Origin: Actinomycetota bacterium
GTDB taxonomy: Bacteria > Actinomycetota > CADDZG01 > WHSQ01
Reading direction: 5' to 3'
NCBI GenBank assembly: GCA_013694625.1
Contig: JACDCD010000090.1
Location: forward strand, 1-63,382
Length of the DNA: 63,382 nt
In this document: piece by piece, positions 1,656 to 37,357 of the stretch
How positions within the stretch are numbered: the stretch's first letter is position 1
Layout: each line of letters opens with the position of its first letter
Notes under the pieces: generated by a model
Database searches by the model: none
What the model was told of the DNA's origin: nothing
Seen by the model: the letters and a program-made list of their open reading frames with translations, nothing else
Program-made: the position numbers and the translations under genes

Positions 1656-1666
1656 AAAGGGCAGAC

Positions 1667-3955: not shown

Positions 3956-4033
3956 GGGGTAAGAGGCATCCAAGATGATGTAGGTTCCCCGCAGTCGGGC
4001 AAGGGGCGCCCGAATGGGAGAAAAGAGATTCTG

Positions 4034-5521: not shown

Positions 5522-5622
5522 ATGGAACTGACTGACCCCGGCCAATGGGCACGTCACATGCCGGTAGCGGGACCCCCGAGCAAGGCTTGGGTTGATCGTC
5601 GCCGGTCACAATGGGACATCGG

Positions 5623-8482: not shown

Positions 8483-8505
8483 GGCGCTTCGTTCCCTCGA
8501 GCCCG

Positions 8506-10062: not shown

Positions 10063-10281
10063 CGACAAGCTCCTTTCGATCCCCAACAGGTCGGTAACTG
10101 GCTCAACCCGTTTCCAAAAGGAAGGACTTGGATAGCATTGAGTTGTTCGTATTGTCGCCTCTTGCCCCACACCTTGCAAATATGGACACCAGAGCGGCGG
10201 CCTTCGGAGGCCGAATTCCTCACTCTGGATGGTCAATGGCATGATGCACACGTCTTTGTGCAGTCAAAAGGGGGTTAAGTC

Positions 10282-11658: not shown

Positions 11659-11678
11659 GGTGATCGTAGACTCGAGCA

Positions 11679-13039: not shown

Positions 13040-14488
13040 CTATCCTTTGACGACCCCCACAGGACGGAGGCGCGCCACCGTCTTCGTGAGCCCCGCGCCC
13101 TCGCACACTTCCACCACTTCGGAGACGTCCTTATAGGCGTAGGGGGCCTCCTCGGACAGCAGCTTCGAGCTCGAGCCTGCCACCAGAATGCCCCGGGAGC
13201 TCAACTGCTCTCTCAGCGTATGGCCGTCCATGACTTTTCGCGCCCTCGTGCGACTCATCAGGCGTCCTGCACCGTGACACGTCGAGCTGAACGAGCGGGT
13301 CCGGGCCGCCTCCAGGCCGGTCAGAACATATGAAGCGGTACCCATGCTGCCTGGAACCATCACAGGTTGTCCGCATTGAGCGTAGCGATCCGGGAGCTCG
13401 GGATGATTCGGCCCGAACGCGCGTGTTGCGCCCTTTCGATGCACGCACAGATCCCGAGTGGCCCCGCCGACCTCATAGGATTCGATCTTGGCGAGATTGT
13501 GGGAGATGTCGTAGACCGTACCCAGATCTCGGGGCCCCGTGCCCAGCACCTCTCCGAACGCGGCGCGTGCCGCGTCGGCGAGCACCTGGCGGTTGGCTCT
13601 TGCGAAATTCCCTGCAGCATCCATCGCACCGAGGTATCTCTGCGCGAGGTCATGGTCGACGGGTAAACATGCGAGCTGCCGGTCTGGAACCTCGATCCCC
13701 AGCTCGCCCATGGCTCGGTCGAAGACCTTGATGTGGTCGGTGCACGCTTGATGCCCCACACCGCGCGATCCTGAATGAATCATCACGCAGACCTGCCCCT
13801 CCCACAGGCTCATCGCCTCCGCCGAGGGTGCATCGAGAATCCTCTCGACCACCTGAACCTCGAGGAAGTGGTTGCCGGCGCCCAGGCTTCCGAGCTGTCC
13901 TCCCCCTCGTTCCTTTGCGCGATCAGATACGTATTCGGACCGCGCACCGGCGAGTGTGCCGGAGTCTTCGGTCATCTCGGCGTCTTCCTCCCACCCCACG
14001 CCTCGGGACAAGGTGAAGGCCACTCCCTCCTCGAGCACCCGATCCATCTCCTGAGGGCTGCATTGCAGCTTGCCTTTGCCGCCGACCCCACGGGGAACCA
14101 TGCGGCCGAGTGACGTGACGAGGTCCGGCAGGCGCGTACGGATGTCGTTCCACGGCAACTGGCTCCGGAGCAGCCGGACGCCGCAACCGATGTCGAAGCC
14201 GACGCCGCCCGGAGAAATCGCACCACCGCTTGCGACGTCTGTGGCCGCTACGCCTCCGATGGGAAAGCCGTATCCCCGGTGGATGTCGGGCATCGCATAT
14301 GAGGCGCCGACGATCCCGGGAAGGGTAGCCACGTTGGCTACCTGCTCGATGGAGTGGTCTTCGGCCGCCTTGTTGAGCAGCGTATTCGAAGCGAAGACAA
14401 GGCCGGGAACCCGCATGCCGCCGACAAAGCCAATAGGGATCTCCCATCTGAACTCTCCTACCTTGCGCGGATGCGTTGATCTAGACAT
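13040..14488 (-). CDS. rtcB: RNA-splicing ligase RtcB
   Basis: A 482-residue GTP/Mn-dependent RNA ligase joining 2',3'-cyclic phosphate (or 3'-phosphate) to 5'-OH ends. Diagnostic features: MPDIHRGYGFPIGG, GGVGFDIGCGVRLL (Asp and Cys metal ligands), GAGNHFLEVQ, HSGSRGVGHQ, and the guanylylated His in STCHGAGR. Length is typical. ATG at 14488 overlaps the archease stop by 8 nt, indicating coupled translation. In bacteria RtcB is used for RNA repair rather than tRNA splicing; no RtcA or RtcR gene is beside it. Confidence 0.95.
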   Translation of the reverse strand: MSRSTHPRKVGEFRWEIPIGFVGGMRVPGLVFASNTLLNKAAEDHSIEQVANVATLPGIVGASYAMPDIHRGYGFPIGGVAATDVASGGAISPGGVGFDIGCGVRLLRSQLPWNDIRTRLPDLVTSLGRMVPRGVGGKGKLQCSPQEMDRVLEEGVAFTLSRGVGWEEDAEMTEDSGTLAGARSEYVSDRAKERGGGQLGSLGAGNHFLEVQVVERILDAPSAEAMSLWEGQVCVMIHSGSRGVGHQACTDHIKVFDRAMGELGIEVPDRQLACLPVDHDLAQRYLGAMDAAGNFARANRQVLADAARAAFGEVLGTGPRDLGTVYDISHNLAKIESYEVGGATRDLCVHRKGATRAFGPNHPELPDRYAQCGQPVMVPGSMGTASYVLTGLEAARTRSFSSTCHGAGRLMSRTRARKVMDGHTLREQLSSRGILVAGSSSKLLSEEAPYAYKDVSEVVEVCEGAGLTKTVARLRPVGVVKG

Positions 14489-14939: not shown

Positions 14940-15127
14940 GGCCTCAGGCTCACATATCTATTGGAGCAGCACCTTCATTTCCAACCTTTGCGAGTATTTT
15001 GCCGGGGAATGGTGCGCCGTGACAGTGCTCTTGGTAGGTTACGTCTGTTAGATCCAGGGGAAGGCTTTCAGAGGTTGCTGCCGGGGTGCAGTTTCTCTTT
15101 GACTTTAGAAGGAAAGGTGGGAGTGGT

Positions 15128-15577
15128 ATGAGCGGAAGCTTGGCCAGTACCTCGGCATCCGGGGGAAGTGAACTCTTAACCGAGAAGGGCAAGACCTCCA
15201 TTGCCGACTCGGTCGTAACCAAGATTGCAGGTATGGCGGCCCGTGAGGTCTCAGGGGTGCACAACATGGGCGCCGGCGGGTCACGAGCGATCGGCGGATT
15301 TGTAGAGAGGCTGCCGATGGGTGGAAGCCAGCCGAGCCCCTCTCAGGGAGTCAAGGTCGAGGTCGGCGAGCGCCAGGCTGCCGTTGATGTCGACATCGTG
15401 ACCGAGTACGGCGTTTCGATCGTCGACGTCGCACAGGCGGTGCGGGACAACATCATCGACCGTGTCGAGTCCATGAGCGGCCTGCAGGTCACCGAGGTGA
15501 ACGTGACGGTAGACGACATTTACATCGAGCAGCCCGAAGAGCCGGCTCCTCCCCCTCCCGAGCCACGGGTCCAATAG
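15128..15577 (+). CDS. Asp23/Gls24-family envelope stress protein
   Basis: A 149-residue Asp23 domain protein: an N-terminal Ser/Gly-rich tail, then KTSIADSVVTKIAGMAAREVSG, a Gly-rich loop, VDVDIVTEYGVSIVDVAQAV and GLQVTEVNVTVDDIYI, ending in a Pro/Glu tail. Asp23 proteins polymerise under the membrane and are linked to cell-envelope stress. The start at ATG 15128 has AGGTGGGAG before it; an upstream in-frame ATG at 15086 lacks conservation. First of seven genes almost without gaps; the next starts 5 nt after its stop. Confidence 0.88.
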   Translation: MSGSLASTSASGGSELLTEKGKTSIADSVVTKIAGMAAREVSGVHNMGAGGSRAIGGFVERLPMGGSQPSPSQGVKVEVGERQAAVDVDIVTEYGVSIVDVAQAVRDNIIDRVESMSGLQVTEVNVTVDDIYIEQPEEPAPPPPEPRVQ

Positions 15578-15582
15578 CGAAG

Positions 15583-16269
15583 ATGCCCGTGGACGCCGAG
15601 GTCGTCGCCTCAGTGGTTGCGGCATGCCCGTCGGTCGCTCGTCTCTATGGCGGCCGCGCTGCCGAAGTGGCCACTTACCTGCCCGGAACGCGGGTCGAGG
15701 GCGTGCGGCTTGCCGAGGATGAGCTCGAGGTGCACGTAGTGGCGGCGTGGGACGTGCCTCTGCCGCAGGTTGCGGACGAGGTTCGCAGCGCTGCAGCCCC
15801 TGTGGGTGGCGGACTTCCGGTGGCCGTCTTCATCGACGACGTCGACATCCCGCCTGCGCTTCTCGGTGCCGACGAACCTCCGGAGGACACCCTGGCGGAC
15901 CCCATGGGGCTAACGGCCCCTGCGCCGCCGGGCGCGACCGTACCCGGAGAGGTCATCCCGCCCCCGCCGGTGCCTCCCCCGGCCGGAGACGCTCTGCCCG
16001 GCGACCCGATGGATCCGCTTGGCGCAGATCCGGTGGACTCTGAAATTCAGGCCGATCTGTTGCTGTCCCAACCGGAACCGGCCACACCTTCGGCCCAGGG
16101 AGATCCCGCAGCAGATGTGCTTCCAGGTGAGATCCTCCCGGATGACCCCGTGCTCGAGGACGAGGTGCCAGGCGACGTGATACCGGGCGAGCCGGTGACG
16201 CCGCCGACGGGCTCCGGGCATCGAAGGAAGAAGCGCACCTCCAAGAAGGGCGCCGGCGGCAGCAGGTGA
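15583..16269 (+). CDS. Asp23-operon protein with acidic/Pro-rich tail
   Basis: A 228-residue protein. Residues 1-95 form an Asp23-partner-like domain (ACPSVARLYGG, ATYLPGTRVEGVR, EVHVVAAWDVPLPQVADEVR) commonly seen beside actinobacterial Asp23 genes. Residues 96-205 are low-complexity, rich in Pro/Asp/Glu with repeated PGE(I/V)-P and PGD units (for example VPGEVIPPPP, LPGEILPDDP, VPGDVIPGEP). The C-terminus is strongly basic (RRKKRTSKKG). This charge layout suggests a flexible tether with a membrane- or nucleic-acid-binding tail. The stop overlaps the next GTG by 4 nt (GTGA). Confidence 0.65.
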   Translation: MPVDAEVVASVVAACPSVARLYGGRAAEVATYLPGTRVEGVRLAEDELEVHVVAAWDVPLPQVADEVRSAAAPVGGGLPVAVFIDDVDIPPALLGADEPPEDTLADPMGLTAPAPPGATVPGEVIPPPPVPPPAGDALPGDPMDPLGADPVDSEIQADLLLSQPEPATPSAQGDPAADVLPGEILPDDPVLEDEVPGDVIPGEPVTPPTGSGHRRKKRTSKKGAGGSR

Positions 16270-16553
16270 AAGTGCAATCAGCGCACTCACCTCTGGGGGT
16301 GGGTGCCGGTGCCAACCAGAGCGAGCTCAAGGACGCTTGGCGACGGTTCGCCATGGCGCATCATCCCGACAGGGGAGGGCGCCCCGATACGTTCAGAGCA
16401 GGCGCAGAGGAGTATCGCCGCCTGGCGGGAAAGCGGTCCCGTCTTTGCGGATCAGAGGTCGTCTTCCATCACAGACCGCGAGGCATGCAGGTACCCGTTG
16501 CGTGGTGCCGGGAGCGATGGAACGCCCGGAGACGGCCAAGAAGAGTGATCTGA
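16266..16553 (+). CDS. miniature J-domain-like protein
   Basis: A 95-residue frame starting at GTG in a GTGA overlap with the previous gene. Residues 9-55 match the J-domain core: PLGVGAGANQSELKDAW (end of helix I and helix II), AMAHHPDRGG with the HPD motif needed to stimulate Hsp70, then a helix III (DTFRAGAEEYRRLAG). The rest is basic and Cys-containing with no known fold; helix I is short. It may recruit DnaK to the envelope-stress complex, or be a decaying J protein. The conserved HPD and operon position favour a real gene; the C-terminal half is uncertain. Confidence 0.5.
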   Translation: MKVQSAHSPLGVGAGANQSELKDAWRRFAMAHHPDRGGRPDTFRAGAEEYRRLAGKRSRLCGSEVVFHHRPRGMQVPVAWCRERWNARRRPRRVI

Positions 16554-18233: not shown

Positions 18234-18814
18234 GCAGCACTCCGGACGCACTCAACCGCACGGTCTTCACACTGCTGGGAATCCTTTTGATCGCAGCGGG
18301 GGCGTACGGCGTGGCGCGAGGGTATGGCGCCTTCGGCAGCACCCAGGCTGAGGAACCGCTCCTCACAGGTGGGATCACCGGCTTCTTCGGCCGCATCGAC
18401 GACTGGTTCTGGCCTGTGGTGGCTCTGGTCGCGTTGATCCTTGCCTATCCTGCCTACAGGTGGCTCAAAGCGCAGCTGACGCCGACGTCGTCGGTGTCCG
18501 ATTTGGACCTGACTCGCGACCCCGCCGAGGGCAGGACGACATTGCGGGCGTCCGGCTTGACCTCCGCCCTGTCCGACGACATAGAGCGGGATCCGGCGGT
18601 GCACTCCGCCCACGTTCGCATGTTGGAGGACGGAGGCAGGCCAGAGGTCGACGTCGACCTCGACGTGTCCGAAGATGCCACTCTGGGTGAGGTGCGCCGT
18701 CGCATAGAGACCGAGGTCCTGGGGCGCTTCTCGTCGGCGCTGGAATCGGACTCCGTCAAGGGACACCTCAGGATCGGCTTGGTGCCGCGTCCTCAGGGAC
18801 GCACCCTCCAGTAA
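18230..18814 (+). CDS. AmaP-like alkaline-shock membrane anchor
   Basis: A 194-residue protein with two N-terminal membrane helices (about residues 11-31 and 56-79) separated by a short loop, then a soluble domain (DLTRDPAEGRTTLRASGLTS, PEVDVDLDVSEDATLGEVRR) as in AmaP-type Asp23 anchors. ATG overlaps the previous stop by 4 nt. Last gene of the operon; the structured repeat block and a terminator follow at once. The assignment rests on topology and context more than on specific motifs. Confidence 0.65.
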   Translation: MSSTPDALNRTVFTLLGILLIAAGAYGVARGYGAFGSTQAEEPLLTGGITGFFGRIDDWFWPVVALVALILAYPAYRWLKAQLTPTSSVSDLDLTRDPAEGRTTLRASGLTSALSDDIERDPAVHSAHVRMLEDGGRPEVDVDLDVSEDATLGEVRRRIETEVLGRFSSALESDSVKGHLRIGLVPRPQGRTLQ

Positions 18815-18815
18815 C

Positions 18816-18881
18816 CTGTTGCGGAAAACACGTCTCTTCAGGTCACGCAGGCTTTAAGTGACCTTCCAGAGACGTGTTTCC
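18816..18881. repeat. structured repeat module A (hairpin)
   Basis: Begins with repeat unit R1 (18816-18847). The arm GGAAAACACGTCTCT (from 18823) pairs with AGAGACGTGTTTCC (ending 18881) apart from one extra A; the inner arm AGGTCAC pairs with GTGACCT, closing the 11-nt loop GCAGGCTTTAA. Module B (19039-19103) has the same design with a T-A to G-C covariation in the inner stem. It lies immediately after the last gene of the Asp23 operon. Confidence 0.85.
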
Positions 18882-18942
18882 TCACAGTAGGGAAAAGGCC
18901 AACCCCCCAAACCCCAAACAACCTCCGGACCTCCTGGGGCAC

Positions 18943-19069
18943 GTGCTGCGGGAGCCCGTTTCCTCAGGCCACGCTGTTGCGGAAACACGTCTCTTCATCA
19001 GGTCACGTGCTGCGGGAGCCCGTCTCCCTCAGGGCACGCTGTTGCGGAAACACGTCTCTTCAGGGCACG
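18943..19069. repeat. tandem array of four about 31-nt units, two alternating variants
   Basis: Units R2 (18943-18973), R3 (18974-19007), R4 (19008-19038) and R5 (19039-19069) lie back to back without spacers. R2 and R4 carry TGCTGCGGGAGCCCGT; R3 and R5 (and R1 at 18816-18847) carry TGTTGCGGAAACACGT; all end in TCAGG(G/T/C)CACG. The alternation implies duplication of a two-unit block of about 64 nt. No spacers, so this is not CRISPR. Confidence 0.85.
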
Positions 19070-19103
19070 CAGGCTTTAAGTGCCCCTCCAGAGACGTCTT
19101 TCC
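19039..19103. repeat. structured repeat module B (hairpin)
   Basis: Unit R5 forms the left arm: GGAAACACGTCTCT (19046-19059) pairs with AGAGACGTCTTTCC (19090-19103), and GGGCAC (19063-19068) pairs with GTGCCC (19080-19085) around the same GCAGGCTTTAA loop as module A. The conserved loop with compensatory change in the stem suggests selection on RNA or cruciform structure. Confidence 0.85.
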
Positions 19104-19108
19104 TCACA

Positions 19109-19162
19109 TTAGGGGAAAATCAAGTCCCCCTAACCACCTTGAGTGGGGGGAAGACCCCCCAC
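19109..19162. repeat. two further short hairpins downstream of module B
   Basis: TTAGGGG (19109-19115) pairs with CCCCTAA (19127-19133); GTGGGGGG (19143-19150) pairs with CCCCCCAC (19155-19162) around an AAGA tetraloop. A degenerate version of the first (TAGGG, AAAA, then a C run) follows module A as well. Together with module B and the terminator they form a chain of four hairpins. Confidence 0.7.
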
Positions 19163-19188
19163 CACACACACCCGCACCTCACGGAAAG

Positions 19189-19221
19189 AAGAATCCGCCC
19201 GGTTTGGCCGGGCGGATTCTT
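19189..19221. terminator. strong bidirectional terminator hairpin
   Basis: AAGAATCCGCCCGG (19189-19202), loop TTTGG, then the perfect complement CCGGGCGGATTCTT (19208-19221): a 14-bp stem with A-rich and T-rich flanks. It separates the Asp23 operon and its repeats from the convergent gene ending at 19254. Confidence 0.85.
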
Positions 19222-19253
19222 TGTGCTGGTCTGACTGTGCGTGGGGGGCTGGC

Positions 19254-20018
19254 TTAGCTTGCGCGGGTTGCGCCGTCGCCTGCGCTCTGGGCCTGGGTCT
19301 TACCCTCTTGCGCCCGCTCCTGGATCCGCTCCTGGGAGCCGGCTGCCTCCTCCTTTACATTGCTGCTCTCTTGCTCGGTGCGGTGGGCGGCACGCTGCCA
19401 GTATTCCTGCATCGTCGAGATGCCGCCGCCCCCGACAGCCACAACGGCGCTGCCTGCCACGATCGCAAGAATGGCATAGAAGAGGCCATTGACGATTTCC
19501 GGAGCGATCTCGAGCTGGTTCAGCGCAGCAAAGGCGGTTATCACGAGGATTGCAGCGCTAGCCACTATGGCCAATGTGCGTCCGTAGGACAGGCCCCCCA
19601 GTGACGCCTCGACGATCTCCTTGACCGCCGCCGCAATTGCAGCGCCGATCACGACAATCACGATGGCCACGAACAGCTTGGGCAGGTAGGCGATGACGCT
19701 CGCTGTCAGGGTGCTGATCGGGTTCGGGCCGAAAACGCCGAAAGCTAGTTGCAGCACGAACAGAAACAGGGCGTAGAAGACAATCCTGCCCAGGATTCCC
19801 GAAGCGTCGTATTGCGATTTGGCAAGAGCTTTGCCTACTCCGCCGCGTTCGACGGCCCTGTCGAAGCCGATGCGCTCGAGGACCTTGTCCAGCACCTTCG
19901 CCACCGCTTTGGCGACGAAATAGCCAATGACAAGGATCAGCAGGAATCCGACCAGCTTCGGCAGGAACGTCGCTACCGACGAAAACGCGTCGCCTAACCC
20001 ATCTGTGAACTCGTCCAT
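19254..20018 (-). CDS. membrane protein with TM_helix repeats (mechanosensitive-channel-related)
   Basis: A 254-residue protein. Two similar hydrophobic repeats, FLPKLVGFLLILVIGYFVAK (residues 18-37) and YLPKLFVAIVIVVIGAAIAA (about 109-128), are each followed by a charged amphipathic stretch: the conserved TM_helix repeat of small-conductance channel-related proteins. A third and fourth hydrophobic segment follow. The last 55 residues are a charged Glu/Gln/Lys-rich tail, probably cytoplasmic. No MscS beta-domain is present. AGGAGAAGCG precedes the ATG. A role in osmotic protection is only suggested by the family. Confidence 0.72.
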   Translation of the reverse strand: MDEFTDGLGDAFSSVATFLPKLVGFLLILVIGYFVAKAVAKVLDKVLERIGFDRAVERGGVGKALAKSQYDASGILGRIVFYALFLFVLQLAFGVFGPNPISTLTASVIAYLPKLFVAIVIVVIGAAIAAAVKEIVEASLGGLSYGRTLAIVASAAILVITAFAALNQLEIAPEIVNGLFYAILAIVAGSAVVAVGGGGISTMQEYWQRAAHRTEQESSNVKEEAAGSQERIQERAQEGKTQAQSAGDGATRAS

Positions 20019-25126: not shown

Positions 25127-26827
25127 CTAGGTGGGGTTGGTGACGGCCCCCCGGGAGGCCGAGGACACCGACGCTGCGTACTTGGCGAAGACGCCCTTTT
25201 TGTGGCGATGGGGGGGCGCCGTCCAGTCGGCGAGGCGCTTGGCGATGGCCTCGTCGGTCAACTTGACCCGCAGCTCGCGCGCGCCGACATCTATCTCGAT
25301 GATGTCGCCCTCGGCGATCGCCGCCAACGGTCCGCCGTGCGCAGCCTCAGGTGAGATGTGGCCGACCATCAACCCCCGGGTGGCTCCGCTGAAGCGCCCA
25401 TCGGTGATGAGAGCAACCGACTCGCCCATACCCTCACCGACGATGGCTGCGGTGACGTGCAGCATCTCCCGCATCCCCGGCCCCCCTGCAGGACCTTCGT
25501 AGCGAATGACGACCACGTCTCCTTCTTCCAGGACGCCGTTCTTGACCGCCTGGAAACAGTCCTCCTCGGAGTCGAAGAGGCGAGCGGGGCCTCGATGGAA
25601 CTGGCGTTCATGCCCGGCTAACTTCACAACGCAGCCTTCCGGGGCGAGATTTCCCCGGAGTATTGCCAGTCCGCCCCATGGCTTGATCGGGCTTTCGATG
25701 GGCACCACGACCTTCTGCATGTGCGCTTCCTCGGCCGATGCTGCGATCTCGCCGATCGTTCTCCCGTCGACGGTGATGGAGTCGGTGTGGAGGAGCCCTT
25801 TCTTTGCGAGCTCACGTGCGATGAGCGCCACCCCGCCGGCGCGATAGAGGTCGGTAGCTACATAGTCACCGCCGGGCTTGAGGTTGGCAATGGTGGGAGT
25901 ACGGGCCGCAATGCGGTCGAAGTCGTCGATCGAGAGCTCCAGCCCGGCCTCCTCGGCTATGGCAAGCAGGTGGAGGACGCCGTTGGTCGAGCCTCCGGTG
26001 GCGGCGATTGAGGTGATCGCGTTCTCGAGAGCCTCGCGCGTGACGATATCTAAGGGCCGCACGTTGTCCTTTACCAGCTCGAGCGCCAGGCGTCCGGCCT
26101 TCTCGGCGGCAGCGCGCTTGCCGGGCGCCGTCCCCGGGATGCCGTCCAAACTCGCGGGCCCAATCCCGAGGAAGTCAACGGCAGCCGCCATCGTGTTGGC
26201 CGTGAACTGCCCGCCGCATGCGCCGGCGCCCGGGCACGCGACGTCCTCGAGGCTGTGGAGGTCGGCGGCCGACAGCTTGCCCGCTGAATGCTGACCCACC
26301 GCCTCGAAGACGTCCTGGATCGTCACGTCGCGACCGCGCCACTTGCCCGGCGCGATCGAACCACTGTAGAGCACGAGGCCTGGAATATTCATGCGGCAGA
26401 GAGCCATGACCGCCGCTGGAATGGTCTTGTCACATCCAACCAGGCACACGATGCCGTCGAACATGTGGCCCCGGGTAACGAGCTCGATCGAATCGGCAAT
26501 AACCTCGCGGCTGATGAGCGAGGCGCGCATGCCCTCTGTGCCCATGGACACACCGTCGGCCACTGCGATCGTGTTGAACTCCATTGGCGTGCCGCCGGAG
26601 GAGCGAATCCCCCCTTTGACCTGTGTGGCGAGATTGCGCTGGTTGAAGTTGCACGGCATCGTTTCGATCCACGCCGTGGCGACGCCGATGATCGGCTTGG
26701 CCAGGTCCTCGTCGGTGTAGCCGACGGCTTTGAGCATTGCGCGCGCCGGCGCTCGATCCGGCCCGTCGGTCAGGGCCGAGCTGACCCGTTTGGCCGGGTC
26801 GGACTCTCGTCCGTAGGGATCGGTCAT
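25127..26827 (-). CDS. ilvD: dihydroxy-acid dehydratase
   Basis: A 566-residue IlvD/EDD enzyme converting 2,3-dihydroxy-isovalerate or -methylvalerate to 2-keto acids in Val/Ile synthesis. Fe-S ligands: Cys in [17 protein letters not shown] and [28 protein letters not shown] and [11 protein letters not shown] are also typical. The canonical DHAD N-terminus ([17 protein letters not shown]) argues against a sugar-acid dehydratase. It is 11 kb from ilvBNC and lies 81 nt downstream of the sugar lactonase on the same strand, so shared transcription is possible. The ilv operon at 38 kb has no ilvD. Confidence 0.94.
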
Positions 26828-26908: not shown

Positions 26909-27754
26909 TCATCCTCTAGGGCCGAGGCGATAGACATCTGTGGCGACTCCGCCGAACAGGGCGTCGACATCATCCTGAGATCTGCCCTCGAGTGCCTCGA
27001 GGCTCGCCCTGTGGACGGCCCCGAGGCTGCCCGCCTGCATGCACACCGGCCAATCGCTGCCCCACATGAGCCGGTCGACACCAAAGCACTCAAGCGCCCA
27101 TTCGATATAGGGCTTGAGATCGCCGGCCGTCCACCCCTGATGGTCGGCTTCGGTCACCAACCCGGAGAACTTGGCGTGAACGCGCGGGTGCGATGCTGCG
27201 GCGGCAAGCTGTTCGGCCCAGGGCTCCCATCTCCGGTCCCTGATTGGTGGTTTGGCCAGATGGTCAAGGACGATCGTGAGGTTCGGCAGCCGGCCTGCGA
27301 TCTTCGGCACGTCTGTCAGATGGTTGGGCCAGGCTGCCGGGACTTCGAATACCAAACCTCTCATCGCCAGCAGCCCGAGCGATTTGGTGACCGAGGATTG
27401 GAGAACCCAATGTGGGTCCGGTTCATCGTGAAGCAGGTGACGGATGCCCCGGAGCCTCGCCTCGTCCGCATAACCCTCCAGTGCCCGGGCGGCTGCGTCC
27501 GGATCGATGAGCGGGATCCAACCCACGACCGCGGCGATCCAAGGGTGCCGCCTTGCCCTATCGAGCATGGCGTTGGTCTCTTCCAGGGAGTCGGCGGCCT
27601 GGACCAGAATCGTCTTGTCGATGGCCTCACCGTCGAGCTCCGGCTTCAGGTCGTCCGGCTCGAAGTTGCGGTAGAGGACGGCATCGTCGGGAGAGATCCA
27701 TGGGTAGTCCACCTGCTGCAGATCCCAGAAGTGCTGATGAGCGTCTACCCGCAA
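26909..27754 (-). CDS. amidohydrolase-family sugar lactonase (L-fucono/L-rhamnonolactonase type)
   Basis: A 281-residue COG3618-type amidohydrolase: DAHQHFWD at the N-terminus (metal His pair), VVGWIPL, GIRHLLHDEPDPHW, LDHLAKPP and the late MWGSDWP with catalytic Asp. Members hydrolyse L-fucono- or L-rhamnono-lactones and related sugar lactones. The TTG start at 27754 was chosen because the DAHQHFW motif normally lies within the first few residues; the preceding sequence is very G-rich. Divergent from an SDR, a kinase and a sugar transporter. The actual sugar is not known. Confidence 0.85.
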   Translation of the reverse strand: MRVDAHQHFWDLQQVDYPWISPDDAVLYRNFEPDDLKPELDGEAIDKTILVQAADSLEETNAMLDRARRHPWIAAVVGWIPLIDPDAAARALEGYADEARLRGIRHLLHDEPDPHWVLQSSVTKSLGLLAMRGLVFEVPAAWPNHLTDVPKIAGRLPNLTIVLDHLAKPPIRDRRWEPWAEQLAAAASHPRVHAKFSGLVTEADHQGWTAGDLKPYIEWALECFGVDRLMWGSDWPVCMQAGSLGAVHRASLEALEGRSQDDVDALFGGVATDVYRLGPRG

Positions 27755-27848
27755 GCCCCCACTGCCCCCTCTACCCCGCTTCGTCGGGCACGTGGCGCGG
27801 GGCAACCGAGGGTGCCCGGCGCGCCGAAGCCCTAGACTACGTCGACTG

Positions 27849-28586
27849 ATGAAAGTCGCGCTTGTCACGGGGGCCGCAAAGGGCATAGGTCGAGCGATAA
27901 CTCAGGCGTTCGCGGACGACGGCTGGAAGGTCGTTGCAGTAGACCGCGAAGCGGGGACGCTCGAGGAGCTGGCCCAACGCCATGGTGACTCCCTGGTAGT
28001 GATAGCCGACGACATAAGCGGGCGAGCCGCGAACCAGAGGGTCGTCGCCTCTGCGCTGGAACACTTCGGTCGTCTCGATGCTGCTGTCGGGAATGCCGGC
28101 ATCAATCTCGAAAAGAGCATCGACGAGACGACCGAGGAGGAGATCGACGGGTTGATCGCCGTCAATATCAAAGCCTTGATCTATCTTGCACAGGCCGTAC
28201 ACGGGCCGCTTGCCGAAACTGCGGGCAGTTTCACGGTGGTGGCTTCAAAGACCGGGCTCGTGGCGCAACTCGGCACACCGGTGTACAACGCGACCAAAGG
28301 AGCCGCAGTGCAGCTTGCTCGCGGCCTGGCGCTCGACTGGGCGCGAGAGAATGTGCGGGTCAACGCGCTCTGTCCCGGAATAGTCGACACTCCGATGCTC
28401 GATCGCTTCATCGACTCCGCTCCCGATCCGAAGCAAGCCCGAAGGGAATTCGCCCAGCAGCAGCCACTTGGCCGGCTCGCTAGCCCCGAAGAGTGCGCCT
28501 CGGTGGCGCTGTTCCTATCCTCGCCGGCCGCCTCTTTCGTGACGGGTGTAGCGCTGCCGGTGGATGGAGGCTTCACCGCCCAATAA
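27849..28586 (+). CDS. SDR-family sugar or sugar-acid dehydrogenase
   Basis: A 245-residue classical SDR: TGAAKGIG at residues 8-15, VDRE after beta-2 (favours NAD), GNAGIN, Ser in VVASKTG, YNATK catalytic Tyr/Lys, and CPGIVDTP. Next to a lactonase and an FGGY kinase, it could oxidise the sugar to its lactone or a 2-keto-3-deoxy acid downstream. The ATG at 27849 lies 10 nt after TAGACT (27833-27838), suggesting a near-leaderless transcript. A GGCGCGCC palindrome lies in the 94-nt divergent gap. Confidence 0.88.
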   Translation: MKVALVTGAAKGIGRAITQAFADDGWKVVAVDREAGTLEELAQRHGDSLVVIADDISGRAANQRVVASALEHFGRLDAAVGNAGINLEKSIDETTEEEIDGLIAVNIKALIYLAQAVHGPLAETAGSFTVVASKTGLVAQLGTPVYNATKGAAVQLARGLALDWARENVRVNALCPGIVDTPMLDRFIDSAPDPKQARREFAQQQPLGRLASPEECASVALFLSSPAASFVTGVALPVDGGFTAQ

Positions 28587-28673: not shown

Positions 28674-30176
28674 ATGGATGGCATGAACGGGTTGTTGCTG
28701 GGGGTTGACATCGGGACGGCAACGTCGAAGGGAACGCTCGCCCGCCCTGATGGCTCTGTGTGCGCCACGGCAGAGCGCCCACACGGCGTCTCACGACCCC
28801 ACCCGGGTTGGGTCGAGCAGGACGCGGACGGTGTCTGGTGGGAAGACTTCTGCGATCTTTGCCGCGAGCTCGTGCCCAAGGCCGATGATGACATTGCGGG
28901 TGTTTGTTGCAGTGGACTCGGTCCCTGCGTCGTTGCAGCAGACGTCAACGGGCATCCCCTCCGTCCGGCCATTCTCTATGGCGTCGACACGAGGGCGGCG
29001 ACCGAGATCCAGGAGTTGACCGTACTTCTGGGTGCCGAAGAGATACTCGCCCGCTGTGGTTCACCGCTGACGAGTCAAGCTGTTGGCCCCAAGCTCGCCT
29101 GGCTGCGCGCCAACGAGCCGGAGGTCTGGGACAGGACAATGTATGTGTTCATGGCCAGCTCCTACCTCGTGTACAGGCTCACGGGTGAGTACATCCTCGA
29201 TCACCACTCGGCCAGTCAGAGTGACCCGCTCTATGAGCTGGCCGCAAACGAATGGATCGAGGACTGGGCATCCGAGGTTGCACCCGGGCTGAGGCTGCCA
29301 CGACTGTTGTGGCCCGGAGAGATAGCGGGGTCGGTGTCGCGTCTCGCCGCCGACACGACCGGTTTGGCTCCGGGCACGCCCGTTGCGGCAGGGACGATCG
29401 ATACATGGGCCGAGGCGGCGAGTGTGGGTGTCCGCAACGCTGGAGACATGATGTTGATGTACGGGACGACGATGTTCCTTGTCGAGGTCTTGAGCCAGGC
29501 TCGCCCCGACCATCGCCTGTGGTCGACCGTGAGCCTGTTTGCCGGGACACACAACCTGGCCGGCGGGATGGCGGCGTCGGGAGCCCTCACGAGCTGGTTC
29601 AAAGACGTCGTCGGTCTCTCTTATGAGACGTTGATCCAGGAGGCCGCGGAGTCCTCTTCCGGCTCCAACGGACTAGTCGTGCTTCCCTACTTTGCGGGTG
29701 AGCGGGCGCCGTTGTTTGACACAAGGGCCCGGGGCGTTATATGCGGCCTGAACCTAGGGCACACGCGCGGCGATCTTTACAGGGCCCTCTTGGAGGGCAC
29801 TGCTTTCGGAGTGCAGCACATCCTTGAAGTCATGAGCGAGGCCGGGGGGACCGGCCGGCGCATTGTGGCTGTAGGGGGTGGCACCAAAGGCGGGCTGTGG
29901 ACCGAGATAGTTTCAAACGTTATCGAAATGCCACAGGACCTGCCTGAGGTGGGGATCGGCGCCAGCTATGGTGACGCTTTTCTTGCGGCCGTAGCAACTG
30001 GGCTCGCCGAACCAGGGGACGAGTGGAATTCCGTTGCCCACAGGGTGGAACCCAACTCGGAGCATCGAGATGTCTACGATGAGCTTTACGCCACGTACAG
30101 GGAGTTGTACCCGGCTACACGCGAGCATCTCCATGCTTTGGCCGACATGCAAGGGGGTCGTTATGTCACCAAATGA
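28674..30176 (+). CDS. FGGY-family carbohydrate kinase
   Basis: A 500-residue sugar kinase with two ASKHA domains: LLLGVDIGTATSKGTLA (phosphate 1) at the N-terminus, GTIDTWAEAASVG and MLMYGTTMF in the middle, and AVGGGTKGGLWTEIVSNV (adenosine motif) late. Family members phosphorylate xylulose, fuculose, ribulose and similar. GAGGATCC before ATG serves as RBS. It continues the SDR direction 87 nt downstream; that gap holds the 14-bp palindrome CTCGGCGCGCCGAG (28653-28666). Its 3' end overlaps the broken transporter ATPase start by 14 nt. The frame is intact. Confidence 0.9.
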   Translation: MDGMNGLLLGVDIGTATSKGTLARPDGSVCATAERPHGVSRPHPGWVEQDADGVWWEDFCDLCRELVPKADDDIAGVCCSGLGPCVVAADVNGHPLRPAILYGVDTRAATEIQELTVLLGAEEILARCGSPLTSQAVGPKLAWLRANEPEVWDRTMYVFMASSYLVYRLTGEYILDHHSASQSDPLYELAANEWIEDWASEVAPGLRLPRLLWPGEIAGSVSRLAADTTGLAPGTPVAAGTIDTWAEAASVGVRNAGDMMLMYGTTMFLVEVLSQARPDHRLWSTVSLFAGTHNLAGGMAASGALTSWFKDVVGLSYETLIQEAAESSSGSNGLVVLPYFAGERAPLFDTRARGVICGLNLGHTRGDLYRALLEGTAFGVQHILEVMSEAGGTGRRIVAVGGGTKGGLWTEIVSNVIEMPQDLPEVGIGASYGDAFLAAVATGLAEPGDEWNSVAHRVEPNSEHRDVYDELYATYRELYPATREHLHALADMQGGRYVTK

Positions 30177-31668
30177 TGCGGACCCGATCGTGCAGTTGAG
30201 GGGACTATCCAAGAGGTTCCCCGGCGCCGTTGCCGTAAAGAGTGTCGACCTTGACATCTATCCCGGAGAGGTGCATGTCATAGCCGGAGAAAATGGCGCG
30301 GGCAAGTCAACTCTCATGAAGCTCATGTCGCAGGTGGAGCGCCCGAATGAAGGCGAGGTCAAGATCGCCGGGCAGGTTGTGAAGTATCAGGGCCCTGCTC
30401 ACGCTCAAAGACTCGGGGTCGCCATGGTGTATCAGGAGTTCGCTCTCGCCCCTGACTTGAGCGTCGCTGAAAACCTTTCGCTTGGTAGAGAGCCCGGTAA
30501 CCGGGGCATCATCGCTCGAGGCGAAGAGAACGCCAACGCCGAAGAGTTGTTGAAGCGTGTTCATCTCGACGTCGAGCCCAAGCGGAAGGTGTCGCAATTA
30601 TCGGTGGCCGAGCAGCAGCGGGTCGAGATAGCCAAGGCGCTTGCCATCAACGCAAAGGTTCTGATCATGGACGAGCCGACGTCCACGCTCACCGGAAAGG
30701 AGATCGATGAGCTGTTCGAGATCATCGAGAAGCTCAAGTCCGATGGCATTGCGATTGTGTACATCACCCACAAGCTCGACGAGATATTTCGCATCGCCGA
30801 CCGCATTACAGTCATGCGTGACGCCGAGGTGGTTGACACATTGTCTGTGGACGACCTCGATGAGGACAAGCTGATCAATCTCATGGTCGGGCGTGAGGTC
30901 GAGAACCTGTATCCCAAGCCTGAGGTCGAGATCGGTGAGGTGGTGTTGGAGGTCGAAGCCATATCGCGCGCCGGCGTCCTGCACGAATGCTCTTTTGAAC
31001 TGCGTAAGGGGTAGATCTTGGGCTTTGCAGGGGTTGTCGGGGCCGGTCGCACCGAGCTGGCGCGGGCGATCTGCGGGGCAGATCCCAAGGACCCGGGCAC
31101 CGTCAGGCTCAACGGCAAGGAAGCCAGAATCAACTCGCCAAAGGCTGCGATCGACGCGGAGATCGTGTACCTGACCGAGGATCGGAAGGGAGAGGGACTC
31201 GCCATGGAGCTACCGATTGCCCAGAACATCACCCTTGCGAAGCTGCCGCTGAAAAGGCGAATGATCAACCTGTCGGGGGAACGTCAGACGGCGGAAACCC
31301 GCAGCGAGGAGCTCGGAATCAAATCATCGGTCCGACGTCAGGTGCAGCTTCTTTCGGGCGGCAACCAGCAGAAAGTGGTCGTCGCGAAATGGCTCGAGAC
31401 GGGAGCCCAGATCCTGTTTTTCGATGAGCCTGCGCGCGGTATCGACGTGAGAGCGAAGGCTCAGATATTCGAGCTGATGGGTGACCTGGCGAGAGAGGGC
31501 AAGGGAATCGTATTGATCTCTTCATACTTGCCCGAGCTCTTGAACATGTGCGATCGCATTGTGGTGATGCGAGAAGGTCGCATAGCTGGAATTCTGGAGC
31601 GCCAGGACTTCAATGAAGAGCGCATCATCGGATTGGCAACCGGAGCCGAGGGGGTTGATGCAGCATGA
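30163..31668 (+). pseudogene. sugar ABC transporter ATPase (RbsA type), interrupted by TAG
   Basis: An approximately 501-codon two-domain ATPase in one frame. The first ATPase domain is complete: Walker A GENGAGKSTLMKL, signature LSVAEQQRVEIAKAL, Walker B VLIMDEPTSTL. After FELRKG the frame meets TAG (31012-31014), then resumes ILGFAGVVGAGRTELARAI, where relatives read KGEILGFAG, so GAG became TAG. The second domain is intact (LLSGGNQQKVVVAKWL, FFDEPARGID). Starts ATG 30163 after AAGGGGGTC. The C-terminal half could at best be made by re-initiation at TTG 31018. Part of a transporter with damage in all three genes. Confidence 0.88.
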
Positions 31669-32684
31669 GCGTCGCGGTAAAGGGTGACCGGAACGATACC
31701 GAGAAGCCCAAAGCTGGTGGAGTGATGGAGGGCCGCTTCGGTGGTGTGCTCTCCCAGGTTTCCGCAGCAGGCGCGCTCATCGTTGTCTTTATTTTCCTGA
31801 CGTTTGCGTCACCTGTGTTCTTGACTGCGACGAACCTTTTCAACGTGGCCACCCAGACGGCCGTGGTAGCGATCATCGCCATAGGCATGACGTTCGTCAT
31901 CATCACCGCCGGCATCGATCTGTCGGTTGGATCGGTCGCTGCTCTTGCCGGCGTGCTAGGCGTGCAGCTGATGGTCTATTACGGGGTTCCCTGACCCCGC
32001 GCCGTCTTACTGGGTACGCTGGCGGGCGGCCTGATCGGACTGTTGAACGGCTTCCTGATCACGGTGGCGGGCATGGCTCCATTCATCGCAACGCTGGGGA
32101 TGCTGTCGGTGGCGCGTGGCCTCGTCTACATCATCACGAACGCCGTCTCAGTGTTCGGCGCGCCGAACTCCTTCAAGGTCCTTGGACAGGGGACCATCTT
32201 CAGTTTTCCCGTCCCGCTTATCTTTTTGATTATCATCGCCGTCGGGGGCCACTTCCTACTGAGCCGGACGCGCCTCGGCCGCTACTCTTACGCCATCGGT
32301 TCCAACCCCGAGGCGGCGCGCCTGTCCGGGATTCCGGTGAAGCGTTATCTCATACGCGTCTAAGTCCTGCAAGGCTTGCTTACGGGTTTTGCCGGCATGA
32401 TTGCCGCGTCGCGCGTAGCCTCGGGGCAGCCGAACTTCGGGTTGGGATTGGAGCTTGATGTGATCGCCGCCTGCGTCGTCGGCGGTGCCAGCCTGTTCGG
32501 CGGCCAGGGAACCATCATCGGCACCTTGCTCGGTGCGTTCCTCATTGCTTTGTTGCGCAACGGCTCCATCCTGTTGGGAATCAGCTCATTCAGCCAGAGC
32601 ATCATCATCGGCGTGGTCATCTGGGTGGCTGTTTTCTACGACCAATTCCAGCGCCGGCGCCTTGCGGCCGCCCAGGGACAATAA
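31665..32684 (+). pseudogene. sugar ABC transporter permease (RbsC type), two in-frame stops
   Basis: A 339-codon permease frame starting at ATG 31665 (ATGA overlap with the ATPase). TGA at 31992-31994 follows VYYGVP where relatives have VPWP, a Trp codon TGG changed to TGA. TAA at 32361-32363 follows KRYLIRV, before LQGLLTGFAGMIAASR, probably a Tyr codon lost. On either side the coding is excellent: TFVIITAGIDLSVGSVAAL, IGLLNGFLITVAGMAPFI, CVVGGASLFGGQGTIIG. Three different stop codons across the transporter rule out a recoded genetic code. No functional permease can be expected. Confidence 0.9.
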
Positions 32685-32696
32685 GGGGGCGCCGCT

Positions 32697-33711
32697 ATGA
32701 AGAGAGCGGTGATGGCCGCAGCGTTGGTTCTGATCACTGCCTGTGGGCAGATCGAAGTGTCGGGCGGCCTGCAAGGGGGCGATCCGCAGAAGAGCGATGG
32801 GGGCCCGATCGAGCTCGCCGTCATCCCCAAATCGGTAGGGCTCAACTTCTGGGAGCAGGTCCGAATCGGCGCCGAATGCGCGGTATCCAAGCAGGAGAAC
32901 GTGACCATGCAGTGGGACGGCGTGACGACGGAGGTTGACGTGACCGGCCAATTCAACCTGCTTCAGAACGTTATTACCCAAGGTGTGGACGGGCTTGTGT
33001 ATGCGGCGCTGGATGCTGCGGTGATGACACAGATATCCCAGCTGGCGCTCGAACAGGGCATCGAGGTCACCAACATCGATTCGGGCACCGACCCTCAGCT
33101 CAAGCAGGTGCCTTTTGTATGCGACCGACAACATAGCTGCGGCCAGGAAGGTAGCTGATCTGCTCGCGGAGGAGATCGGGCCCAAAGGGGGTGAGGTTGC
33201 GTTCCTGCCCTTCCAGCCGGGGAGCGGCACGAACGACGATCGGGCCAAGGGGTTCAAGCAGGGTCTCAAAGAGCACCCCGAATTGAAGCTCGTGGACGAA
33301 CAGACGACTCAGAGCGACTACAACATCGCGCTGAACGTAACGGAGAACATCCTTACTGCCCATCCGGGCCTCGACGGCATCTTTGCGGCGAACGAGGGAG
33401 GGGTTCTCGGTGCAGCAGAGGCCGTGCGGCGCGCAGACAAGGCCGGTGACATTGCGATGATCGGATGGGACGCATCACCGGACGAGATTGCGGCTGTCAA
33501 AGAGGGCGTCGTCAGCGTGCTCGTGACCCAGAACCCGTTCAAGATGGGCTACGAGGGTGTCAACGCCGCACTTCAGCTCATCCGCACAGGGAAGACCCCA
33601 AAGAGCGAGGAAACGGGCACCTACTACATCACCAAGGACAATGTAAACGACCCCAAGATCAAATCGGTGTACGACCCGAGCTGTCAGGATCCCCCGCTGT
33701 TCGACGATTGA
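32697..33711 (+). pseudogene. sugar ABC transporter substrate-binding protein (RbsB type), frameshifted
   Basis: A periplasmic-binding-protein-like lipoprotein: signal with lipobox LITAC, then AVIPKSVGLNFWEQVRIGAE. Frame 1 breaks after KQVPF near 33115 and the rest continues in the next frame as YATDNIAAARKVADLLAEE through IAMIGWDASPDE to the end at 33711. The span of 1015 nt is 3n+1, so one base was gained, most simply one T in the TTTT run at 33114-33117. Both parts have good codon use, so the damage is recent. Confidence 0.88.
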
Positions 33712-33789: not shown

Positions 33790-34572
33790 TTAGAGTCGAC
33801 CCGCCGCGACTATTCGCTGCAGGAACTGCTGGGTGCGCGGTCGTTGAGGCGCTGTGAATATCTCTTCCGGCCGGCCTTCCTCGATGATCACTCCCGCGTC
33901 GAGGAAGCACACACGGTCGGCGGTGTCACGCGCGAAGCCCATCTCATGGGTGGCGATAACCATCGTCATGCCGCCCAGGGCGAGCTCTTTGACCAAGCCC
34001 AGTACCTCCGCAACGAGCTCGGGGTCGAGTGCGCTCGTGACCTCATCGAGGAGCATGATCTCGGGGTTCATCGCAAGTGCACGTGCTATCGCAACCCGCT
34101 GTTGCTGTCCGCCCGAGAGCCGGTCCGGATATTCATCCTTCTTTTCCGCAAGCCCGATACGGTCCAGAAGCTCGGCCGCCCGCGCCCCTGCCTCAGATGG
34201 GGACATCTGCAGGACGCGTCGCGGGCCCAGGGTGATGTTCTGGAGGACGGTCATGTGGGGGAACAGATTGAACGCCTGAAATACGATTCCGATGCGGCGC
34301 CTCACCTGGTTGACGTCGACGCCTGGGATCGTGATGTCGTGTCCCTCGACGAAGATGCTCCCCGAGTCCACAGGTTCAAGCAGATTTATGCACTTGAGCA
34401 GAGTCGACTTACCCGAGCCGGATGCCCCGATGAGGCAGATGACCTCGAGCGGGGCTACCTGAACGCTCATGCCATTGAGCACCCGGTTGGCGCCGAAGGA
34501 CTTGTAGACGTTCTCGATACGCAGGGCCGGCTCGTCGGTTGTGGACGTCCGAAGCGGGGTGTCTGCCGTCAT
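33790..34572 (-). CDS. polar amino acid ABC transporter ATP-binding protein
   Basis: A 260-residue GlnQ-like ATPase: Walker [15 protein letters not shown]-loop [12 protein letters not shown], signature [15 protein letters not shown], Walker [14 protein letters not shown], and H-loop ATHEM. Last of a three-gene minus-strand operon (binding protein, permease, ATPase); ATG overlaps the permease stop by 4 nt. All motifs are complete, in contrast to the neighbouring broken sugar transporter. Substrate probably a polar amino acid or opine; not determinable. Confidence 0.93.
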
Positions 34573-35468
34573 ACGATGGCTCCTGCGGCCCGGCGGCGCC
34601 GGTCCCGAGCGATCAGTTGATCGGTGAAACGTGCGAGAGGAATCGTCAAGAGCACGAATAGCCCTGCAGCGATGACATAGCTAGAGTAGTTGAATTGCTC
34701 CGCTGCATAGATCTGCGCCGCACGCGCCGCCTCTACCGATCCCAGCACCGAGACGAGAGCGGTGTCTTTCTGCAGGCCGATGAAGTCGTTCAACAGTGGC
34801 GGAATGACCCGGCGGATGGCCTGGGGGAGTACTACGAAACGCAGCGATTGCCAGCGCGATAGACCAAGGGAGCGCGCGGCCGCGACCTGGCTTTCGTGAA
34901 TGGAGTCGATCCCGGCTCTGTACACCTCGGCGACATAAGCGGAGTACACGAGCACCAGGGAAGCGATGCCGTAGGTGACGTCGGATCGGCTGGAGAAGAA
35001 GCGTAGACCCAACCCCGGGACACCGAATCCGAGCATGTACAGGACGAGGATCAGCGGCACTCCCCGAAAGAGATCTGTATACGCAACGGCAACTGCTCTA
35101 AAAGGAAAAAAGACGGGGCCGGGGATGCCACGCACGATCGCGACGATGAGCGCAAGCACGAGAATGAAGGCCTCGGCGATCATGAATATCTTCACGTTCA
35201 AGAGCAAGGCTTCGAACACGGAGGGAGAGGTTTGGGTCCCGAAGAAAGCCTGCCTCAGATGGACGGGATCCAAGAAGCGCTCTTGCACGATCGAGGCCCC
35301 CGGCGCCAAGGCAATCGCCGCAAAAAGCACAACAAAGAAGACAATCGTGCTGGCACTGGAGACTAGAACCGCTCGTCCACCGAGCATACGAGAGCCACGT
35401 GAGGGCGGCGGAGAAGCACCAGGTAAGCCGAGGGGATCGAGCCCGCCTTGTGGGGCGCCCGTCGTCAC
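34569..35468 (-). CDS. polar amino acid ABC transporter permease
   Basis: A 299-residue HisMQ-type permease. A Gly/Pro-rich N-terminal tail precedes about six membrane helices; the EAA-like loop [25 protein letters not shown] contacts the ATPase. [15 protein letters not shown] is a family hallmark. Only one permease is encoded, so it likely homodimerises. Starts GTG at 35468, 55 nt after the binding-protein gene, with GGGAC-like sequence upstream but no strong RBS. The basic C-terminus (RDRRRR) is cytoplasmic. Confidence 0.9.
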
Positions 35469-35523
35469 CAGGTTCTGTCCCAGCCGGCGCCGCCATCGCG
35501 GGAACGTGACAACAGAATGAAGA

Positions 35524-36363
35524 CTAGTCCTTCAGGATGGGGACGCCCAGATAGTCTTGCAGCCACTTGTCCTGCAGCTTCTTCAGCGTTCCATCCTTCT
35601 TCAAATCCGAGAGCACCTGGTTGACGCAATCGACGAGCGGGCTTCCCTTCTCGAAAACCATTCCGAACTGCTCGTTGGTCGGATACTGTCCAACCACAAC
35701 CGAGCCTGGGATTTCGAAGTCTCGAAGGTAAACTGTGGTCACCACATCGGTGACGAGCCCATCCAACTGGCCGCTTTCGAGTGCGGACTTGACGTCGTTG
35801 GTTGTATCGAAGATCTTAGGCTCGCTTGTGGGCTGGATAACCGAGTTGATGAAACCAAAGCTCGTAGTGCCGACCTGAGTGCCCAACTGAGCATCCTTCA
35901 GATCGGCGACACTGTCCGCCTCGGTGATGGTGCTGTCCTTGGCCGCCAGCAGGCCCTGGTTGTTGTCGAAGTACCCGTCTGAGAAAGCGACCGCCTGCCT
36001 TCGTTCGGGCGTGATCGAAATCTGGTTGATGTCGAAATCGTAGTCTTTGGCCCCCGGTGCGAAGGACTTGTTGAACGGCTCGACCACCCACTTGACCGGG
36101 ACGCCGAGGCCCTTTGCGACGGCCGTGGCGAGAGCCCCCTCGTATCCGCTGTAACGCTTTGGGTTGCCCTCGAACCAAGGTGGGAAAGCGGGCCTGTCGG
36201 TGGCGACCGTCAGGACGCCATCCTCCATGAGCGGGGGATTTGATGTGTCGCAGCCCGCCGCAGAGCCGCTACCTCCTCCGTTGCCGGACGTGGGGGTGTC
36301 CTCCTCGGCGCAGGCGGCCAGAAGGAGCGTCAAGATGATCAATCCGGTGGCGACCCTGCGCAT
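35524..36363 (-). CDS. amino acid ABC transporter substrate-binding lipoprotein
   Basis: A 279-residue SBP family 3 protein. The signal peptide ends in lipobox LLAAC (Cys near residue 18) followed by a Gly/Ser linker. Domain landmarks are GVLTVATDRPAFPPWFEG, SGYEGALATAVAKGLGV, DFDINQISITPERRQAVAFS and the final LKKLQDKWLQDYLG. First gene of its operon, and its start faces the RTX gene across a 232-nt gap that has no clear operator. GAGGACGAGGAACC precedes ATG. Binds a polar amino acid; identity unknown. Confidence 0.92.
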   Translation of the reverse strand: MRRVATGLIILTLLLAACAEEDTPTSGNGGGSGSAAGCDTSNPPLMEDGVLTVATDRPAFPPWFEGNPKRYSGYEGALATAVAKGLGVPVKWVVEPFNKSFAPGAKDYDFDINQISITPERRQAVAFSDGYFDNNQGLLAAKDSTITEADSVADLKDAQLGTQVGTTSFGFINSVIQPTSEPKIFDTTNDVKSALESGQLDGLVTDVVTTVYLRDFEIPGSVVVGQYPTNEQFGMVFEKGSPLVDCVNQVLSDLKKDGTLKKLQDKWLQDYLGVPILKD

Positions 36364-36595
36364 GGTTCCTCGTCCTCTCGTGCTCTCGAGCGATTTCGTC
36401 TAAAGCGAGCGGATGTCCGCTCCGATTGGACTCTAGCCGCCTCGATGGAGGGCGACCCGCAACTTCCCCCGGTCGAGGCCGTTCTAGGTAGAGGACATCC
36501 TCCACCAGAAAGGTGACGAACGGGTGATATCCGGATGGAAGGAAATGGACGGTATCGAAGGCCAGTGGAGGATCGACGGAGATGGAGGTAGTCGT

Positions 36596-37357
36596 ATGAG
36601 TAGATTTCGACCGACCGGGCTTGTGGTCATTGCGGTCATCGCCCTTACGGGCGCGTTGGTGGTGGGGCTGACGGGCGCCCAGGCTGCGGGCAAGAAGAAA
36701 TGCCTGGGCAAGAGGGCCACGATTGTCGGCACCCGGGGAGGCAACGAGATCGAAGGAACCGGGCGTGTCGATGTGATCGTCGGGCGCGGCGGCGACGATC
36801 GAATCGTCGGCCGTCGGGGCAATGACCTGATCTGTGGCAACGGCGGGAACGACAACATCATCGGGGACAGAGGCAACGACCGCATCAAGGGCGGCAAAGG
36901 CCTGGACATCCTTAGAGGTATGCAGGGCAAAGACACCATGAAGGGCGGCAAGGCCGAGGACCATCTTTCCGGCATCAGCGGTTCGGACCGGCTCTTCGGT
37001 GGCCCCGGGAATGACACCGTGAGCGGGCAGAAGGGGTTGGACTTCCTCTACGGGGGCCCCGGTCCGGACATAGTCATCGGCGGGATCGGCACCTCCACAG
37101 ACGTCCTCAAGGGCGGCAGAGGGAACGATGACATCGAGGGTCAGTCTGGAGATGACCGGGCCTATGGCGGCGCCGGAGCCGACCTCATCACCGGAGAGTT
37201 GGACAACGACGAGCTCCGGGGCGGTGAGGGTGACGACGACATCCGCGGCGGTGACGGGGACGACTTCCTGGATGGCGGCCCCCAGACGGACTTCCTGGGT
37301 GGAGGCGAAGGCGAGGACGAGTGCATCAACGGTGAAAGCACGAGCCTCTGTGAGTAA
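36596..37357 (+). CDS. secreted RTX (haemolysin-type calcium-binding) repeat protein
   Basis: A 253-residue protein. Signal peptide with core LVVIAVIALTGALVVGL and likely cleavage near AQAAG. From residue 45 to 245 it consists of Gly/Asp-rich nonapeptide RTX repeats (GGxGxDxxx), for example GRGGDDRIVG, GNGGNDNIIG, GGPGNDTVSG and GGEGDDDIRG, forming a calcium-binding parallel beta-roll. A Cys pair flanks the domain. ATG 36596 has GGAGGT upstream. No type I secretion genes are nearby; in a monoderm Sec export suffices. No enzymatic domain is attached, so its role is unknown. Confidence 0.85.
   Translation: MSRFRPTGLVVIAVIALTGALVVGLTGAQAAGKKKCLGKRATIVGTRGGNEIEGTGRVDVIVGRGGDDRIVGRRGNDLICGNGGNDNIIGDRGNDRIKGGKGLDILRGMQGKDTMKGGKAEDHLSGISGSDRLFGGPGNDTVSGQKGLDFLYGGPGPDIVIGGIGTSTDVLKGGRGNDDIEGQSGDDRAYGGAGADLITGELDNDELRGGEGDDDIRGGDGDDFLDGGPQTDFLGGGEGEDECINGESTSLCE

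What the first reader, a model, noticed from the sequence alone, without database searches (positions are those of the whole stretch)
30163..33711. Entire sugar ABC transporter recently inactivated beside intact catabolic genes
The ATPase has TAG at 31012, the permease has TGA at 31992 and TAA at 32361, and the binding protein has a one-base gain near 33114-33117. Everything between the lesions reads as excellent protein, and other genes in the window look intact. Four lesions in one 3.5-kb operon, with three different stop codons, point to relaxed selection on uptake only, while the kinase, SDR and lactonase remain open. The cell may now take up the sugar by another route or be losing the pathway.
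Basis: seen in the sequence. Interest (0 to 1): 0.72.

Follow-up and report, generated by a model that had tools for sequence, protein, structure and literature searches.

The report
Decaying sugar importer beside intact enzymes
An unnamed actinobacterium-type genome carries a sugar uptake pump whose three genes are all recently broken, and its closest sequenced relative has already deleted the same pump, so this is an ordinary case of a bacterium losing a feeding pathway, caught part-way.

Summary
A CUT2-type sugar ABC importer (ATPase 30163-31668, permease 31665-32684, binding protein 32697-33711) carries TAG at 31012, TGA at 31992, TAA at 32361 and a one-base frame change at about 33113-33118. 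The genome holds no intact copy. No other window gene that could be compared with a same-genus genome (G001) is interrupted. In G001 the flanking genes keep their order but the importer is gone: about 95 bp remain, beginning with what looks like the first codons of the ATPase. So the importer was probably ancestral, was deleted in one species and is decaying in the other. Intact relatives, downstream of a 61-62% identical kinase, occur in another class of the phylum. Kinase, SDR and lactonase are constrained between the two species (dN/dS 0.12-0.18), but the G001 lactonase has a premature stop, so loss there is not confined to uptake. Three nonsense mutations date inactivation to roughly the last 10-16% (limits 2-46%) of the lineage since the G001 split. 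Pathway loss starting at the importer fits best; another uptake route is not excluded. A well-known kind of event. Raw reads could not be examined.

The parts
30163..31668 (+). Broken ATPase gene of a CUT2-type (RbsA/AraG-like, two nucleotide-binding domains) sugar ABC importer; the stop lies just before the second Walker A motif
31012..31014 (+). Premature stop TAG in the ATPase; a glutamate in all 18 aligned homologues
31665..32684 (+). Broken permease gene (BPD_transp_2, RbsC/AraH-like)
31992..31994 (+). Premature stop TGA in the permease, at a variable position of the family
32361..32363 (+). Premature stop TAA in the permease; a tyrosine in all 20 aligned homologues
32697..33711 (+). Broken sugar-binding protein gene (Peripla_BP_4), split into ORFs 32697-33158 and 33115-33711
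33113..33118 (+). Site of the one-base frame change in the binding-protein gene; the exact base is ambiguous
28674..30176 (+). Intact FGGY-family carbohydrate kinase, overlapping the ATPase start by 14 bases; 86% identical in G001
27837..28586 (+). Intact short-chain dehydrogenase (SDR)
26909..27808 (-). Intact amidohydrolase related to L-fucono-1,5-lactonase; its G001 counterpart has a premature stop
25127..26827 (-). Intact dihydroxy-acid dehydratase IlvD, over the TIGR00110 cut-off; probably branched-chain amino acid synthesis, not part of the sugar pathway
33790..36363 (-). Intact amino-acid-type ABC transporter (ATPase, permease, SBP_bac_3), the right-hand flank conserved in G001

Best explanation
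A three-gene CUT2-type monosaccharide importer, ancestrally downstream of an FGGY kinase and beside an SDR and a fuconolactonase-like enzyme, has been inactivated in this lineage by at least four mutations and is a true pseudogene operon. Shown: the lesions, the lack of an intact copy in the assembly, the absence of the operon from the same-genus genome G001 in an otherwise identical neighbourhood, and intact homologues elsewhere in the phylum. Inferred: the importer was present in the common ancestor, was deleted in G001, and became inactive independently and recently here because the sugar no longer matters; kinase and SDR persist for now. The pathway is being dismantled with uptake lost first.
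For: Lesions. Next best permease in the own genome is only 43% identical, so no intact copy. G001 keeps the order ABC1 kinase-like gene, ilvD, lactonase, SDR, kinase, then the amino-acid transporter, with a gap of about 95 bp in place of the importer. After the kinase stop about 19 bases match the ATPase start (15 identical), reading MPTDDADPVVE against MSPNDADPIVQ. Kinase lies directly upstream of the intact ATPase-permease-binding protein in f13 genomes G250, G202 and G318; in G260 the contig ends after the ATPase; in G280 only 74 kinase residues match. Invariant residues are almost all kept, so inactivation is recent. Dating from three nonsense changes: about 10-16% of the branch since the G001 split, limits 2-46%. 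G001 lactonase is truncated by TGA about 33 codons early.
Against: No raw reads and no second strain of this species could be checked. Kinase and SDR show dN/dS of 0.12-0.15 and no significant acceleration here, which suits a pathway still in use as well as one only recently abandoned. The G001 lactonase stop is a single change in a draft genome that also has an apparent frame change in rtcB. The ATPase remnant in G001 is short.
Confidence: 0.78

Rival explanations
1. Transporter replacement: the importer is dead, but the sugar now enters by another transporter and the kinase-SDR-lactonase pathway is still used.
For: Kinase, SDR and lactonase are open and constrained. The genome has other CUT2-type permeases, including a rhamnose-type locus on contig C36 that also carries a 62% identical kinase paralogue.
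Against: G001 lost the importer too and also has a broken lactonase. No linked replacement transporter was found. Substrate overlap is not testable here.
Confidence: 0.3
2. Sequencing or assembly error: the stops and the frame change are artefacts of a draft contig.
For: Draft genome of 230 contigs. In M. smegmatis 28 of 73 resequenced interrupted genes were sequencing errors, about 4 per Mb (PMC1852416).
Against: Four lesions in 3.5 kb and none in the comparable rest of the window. The same operon is missing from a separately assembled relative. Three of the four are base substitutions, not homopolymer slips.
Confidence: 0.06
3. The interrupted genes still work, by stop-codon readthrough, recoding or assembly of split polypeptides.
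For: Possible restart codons follow the stops (TTG at 31018, 32043 and 32376).
Against: Three different stop codons plus a frame change; the two permease breaks cut the membrane domain into three pieces. Intact f13 homologues are single uninterrupted frames.
Confidence: 0.02
4. Failed horizontal transfer: the importer was acquired by this lineage alone, never became established and decayed; G001 never had it.
For: Closest homologues lie in another class (62-71%), not in the own class (50% or less). Failed transfers are a common source of prokaryotic pseudogenes (PMC522871). G013 has the kinase without the importer.
Against: ATPase start remnant in G001. The kinase-importer order is shared with f13 and the kinase is inherited together with G001 and G013. 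The 14-base overlap of kinase and ATPase looks native.
Confidence: 0.15

Closest known systems
CUT2 family monosaccharide ABC importers (RbsABC, AraFGH, AlsBAC type)
   Same: Dual-domain ATPase, BPD_transp_2 permease and Peripla_BP_4 binding protein in one operon
   Different: All three genes are interrupted; scores lie below every NCBIfam equivalog cut-off, so the substrate is not assigned
Intact kinase-importer cassette of family f13 in the same phylum (G250, G202, G318)
   Same: Same gene order kinase, ATPase, permease, binding protein; 61-62% kinase identity, 62-71% permease identity across f13
   Different: Intact in f13; in G250 and G202 the cassette lies near lactate racemase-like and LutABC-like genes, here near SDR, lactonase and ilvD
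ABC transporter pseudogenes in prokaryotes (Liu et al. 2004, PMC522871)
   Same: Premature stops and a frame change in an ABC transporter, one of the top pseudogene families in that survey
   Different: Here a whole operon is affected, and a congener shows a further stage, deletion
L-fucono-1,5-lactonase family (NF052480; PDB 4dlf group)
   Same: The neighbouring amidohydrolase matches over nearly its full length
   Different: 220 bits against a cut-off of 400, so its substrate is open

Membership tests
CUT2-type sugar ABC importer (origin of the genes) | Single ATPase polypeptide with two nucleotide-binding domains | tested here: met
   Two ABC_tran stretches in the 501-codon frame read through the stop
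CUT2-type sugar ABC importer (origin of the genes) | Permease of the BPD_transp_2 family and binding protein of the Peripla_BP_4 family in the same operon | tested here: met
Pseudogene operon | Coding frames interrupted relative to intact homologues | tested here: met
Pseudogene operon | No intact copy elsewhere in the genome | tested here: met
   Next best permease is 43% identical; the assembly is 98.2% complete, so a small doubt remains
Pseudogene operon | Lesions present in the cells and not only in the assembly | not testable with these tools
   No raw reads available
Pseudogene operon | No functional product | not testable with these tools
   Needs expression and a transport assay
Substrate-specific transporter (arabinose, ribose, allose, xylose type) | Score above an NCBIfam equivalog cut-off for one substrate | tested here: not met
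   All equivalog hits below cut-off
L-fucono-1,5-lactonase | NF052480 equivalog cut-off of 400 bits | tested here: not met
   220.3 bits

The most novel reading that the evidence does not exclude
The genus keeps a working kinase-SDR route fed from inside the cell or by a promiscuous transporter, so that loss of the dedicated importer is favoured repeatedly and independently in sister species and is not just passive decay.
Probability: 0.15. Interest if true: 0.45.

Novelty: new member of a known kind. Interest (0 to 1): 0.27.

Why it matters
It is a clean snapshot of stepwise pathway loss: one species with a freshly broken importer, a sister species with the importer deleted and one enzyme truncated, and intact versions in another class. 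It shows that the presence of catabolic genes in such a draft genome does not prove use of the sugar. The phenomenon itself is well known.

Tried and rejected
A second broken gene at 14950-16330, suggested by a minus-strand G001 frame with three stops in the window, was rejected: substitution periodicity shows intact plus-strand genes there. A faster kinase in the window lineage, suggested by branch lengths 0.107 vs 0.058, was not significant. The dN/dS of 1.57 for ORF 61599-62627 is probably a wrong-frame ORF; the overlapping frame 61609-62379 is 97% conserved in G001. No Rfam family lies in the region. IlvD as a sugar-acid dehydratase was considered and rejected because it passes the IlvD cut-off.

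Full report
Observation. The frame 30163-31668 reads as one ABC ATPase with a single TAG at 31012-31014. The frame 31665-32684 reads as one permease with TGA at 31992-31994 and TAA at 32361-32363. The binding protein is split between ORFs 32697-33158 and 33115-33711 by a one-base frame change within about 33113-33118. Pfam assigns ABC_tran twice, BPD_transp_2, and Peripla_BP_4 on both halves of the binding protein. NCBIfam's best hits for the ATPase are L-arabinose, allose, ribose and xylose type systems, all below cut-off, so the family is CUT2-type but the substrate is open.

Is it real. Homologues have sense residues at all three stops; the ATPase position is a glutamate in every aligned homologue and the second permease position a tyrosine in every one. 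At columns invariant in all the other sequences the permease departs only at the stop itself (1 of 29) and the ATPase at the stop and two more residues (3 of 60), so little decay has followed. The own genome (2.72 Mb, 230 contigs, 98.2% complete) has no intact copy; its next best permease is 43% identical. Comparison with the same-genus genome G001 over most of the window showed no interrupted window gene other than the importer. One suspicious stretch, 14950-16330, was cleared by the codon periodicity of substitutions. Concentration of all four lesions in 3.5 kb argues against random sequencing error, although raw reads could not be seen. For scale, 28 of 73 resequenced interrupted genes in M. 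smegmatis were sequencing errors, about 4 per Mb (PMC1852416).

The sister species. G001 contig C181 carries the same order: ABC1 kinase-like gene, ilvD, lactonase, SDR, kinase, then the amino-acid ABC transporter, at 77-95% protein identity. The importer is absent; about 95 bp separate the kinase stop from the converging ATPase gene of the amino-acid transporter. Similarity to the window continues past the kinase stop for about 19 bases (15 identical, my count) and ends inside the importer's ATPase start, reading MPTDDADPVVE against MSPNDADPIVQ here, with EPVVR at the same place in f13. The simplest reading is a deletion in G001 of an importer present in the common ancestor. The remnant is short, so this step is likely and not proven.

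Relatives with an intact importer. In a sample of 397 genomes of the phylum, close permeases (62-71%) occur only in family f13 of another class; the own class has 50% or less. In f13 genomes G250, G202 and G318 the intact ATPase, permease and binding protein lie directly downstream of a kinase 61-62% identical to the window's. In G260 the contig ends after the ATPase. In G280 only 74 kinase residues match upstream of an intact importer. In G033 and G061 kinase and importer are far apart. The kinase tree groups the window with G001 and then with G013 of the same family (support 0.93). G013 has the kinase near ilvD but no importer beside it.

Selection and dating. Between window and G001, dN/dS is 0.149 for the kinase, 0.121 for the SDR, 0.181 for the lactonase and 0.067 for ilvD. 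The kinase is not significantly faster in the window lineage (24 vs 14 unique changes, p = 0.14; 14 vs 12 with the majority of outgroups). Three nonsense mutations imply about 2-3% neutral divergence since inactivation, or about 10-16% of the lineage since the G001 split (extreme limits 2-46%). The estimate assumes that synonymous change is neutral. It points to inactivation after the split, and so independently of the G001 deletion.

Beyond the finding. Together with the deletion of the importer this suggests that the pathway as a whole is being lost in the genus, with the importer going first. The competing view, that another transporter now serves the pathway, is not excluded: the genome has further CUT2-type systems and a rhamnose-type locus on contig C36 with a 62% identical kinase paralogue.

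Comparison with what is known. [quoted passage not shown] The case is a good example of a familiar process and not a new kind of system.

Noticed in passing
L046:5969-5971 (G001:C181): Premature TGA in the lactonase of the same-genus genome, about 33 codons before the normal end.
   Followed up: yes
window 13040-14488 and G001:C181 about 18380-19830: RtcB RNA ligase is intact in the window, beside archease, but changes frame in G001; either a real lesion or an assembly error there.
   Followed up: partly
G014:C47:1022-1945; G002:C44:1660-3111: A CUT2 permease and an FGGY kinase in other genomes of the same family each hold one in-frame TGA; sugar-uptake genes may decay more widely in this family.
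   Followed up: no
L047 (G000:C36) 1-12204: A complete-looking L-rhamnose-type locus (kinase, ABC importer with two permeases, isomerase, aldolase/dehydrogenase fusion) that also carries a kinase 62% identical to the window's.
   Followed up: partly
window 36524-37357: Protein with nine RTX-type calcium-binding nonapeptide repeat matches (HemolysinCabind), conserved at 81% in G001.
   Followed up: no
window 61599-62627: ORF with dN/dS of 1.57 against G001, probably a wrong reading frame over the gene at 61609-62379.
   Followed up: partly
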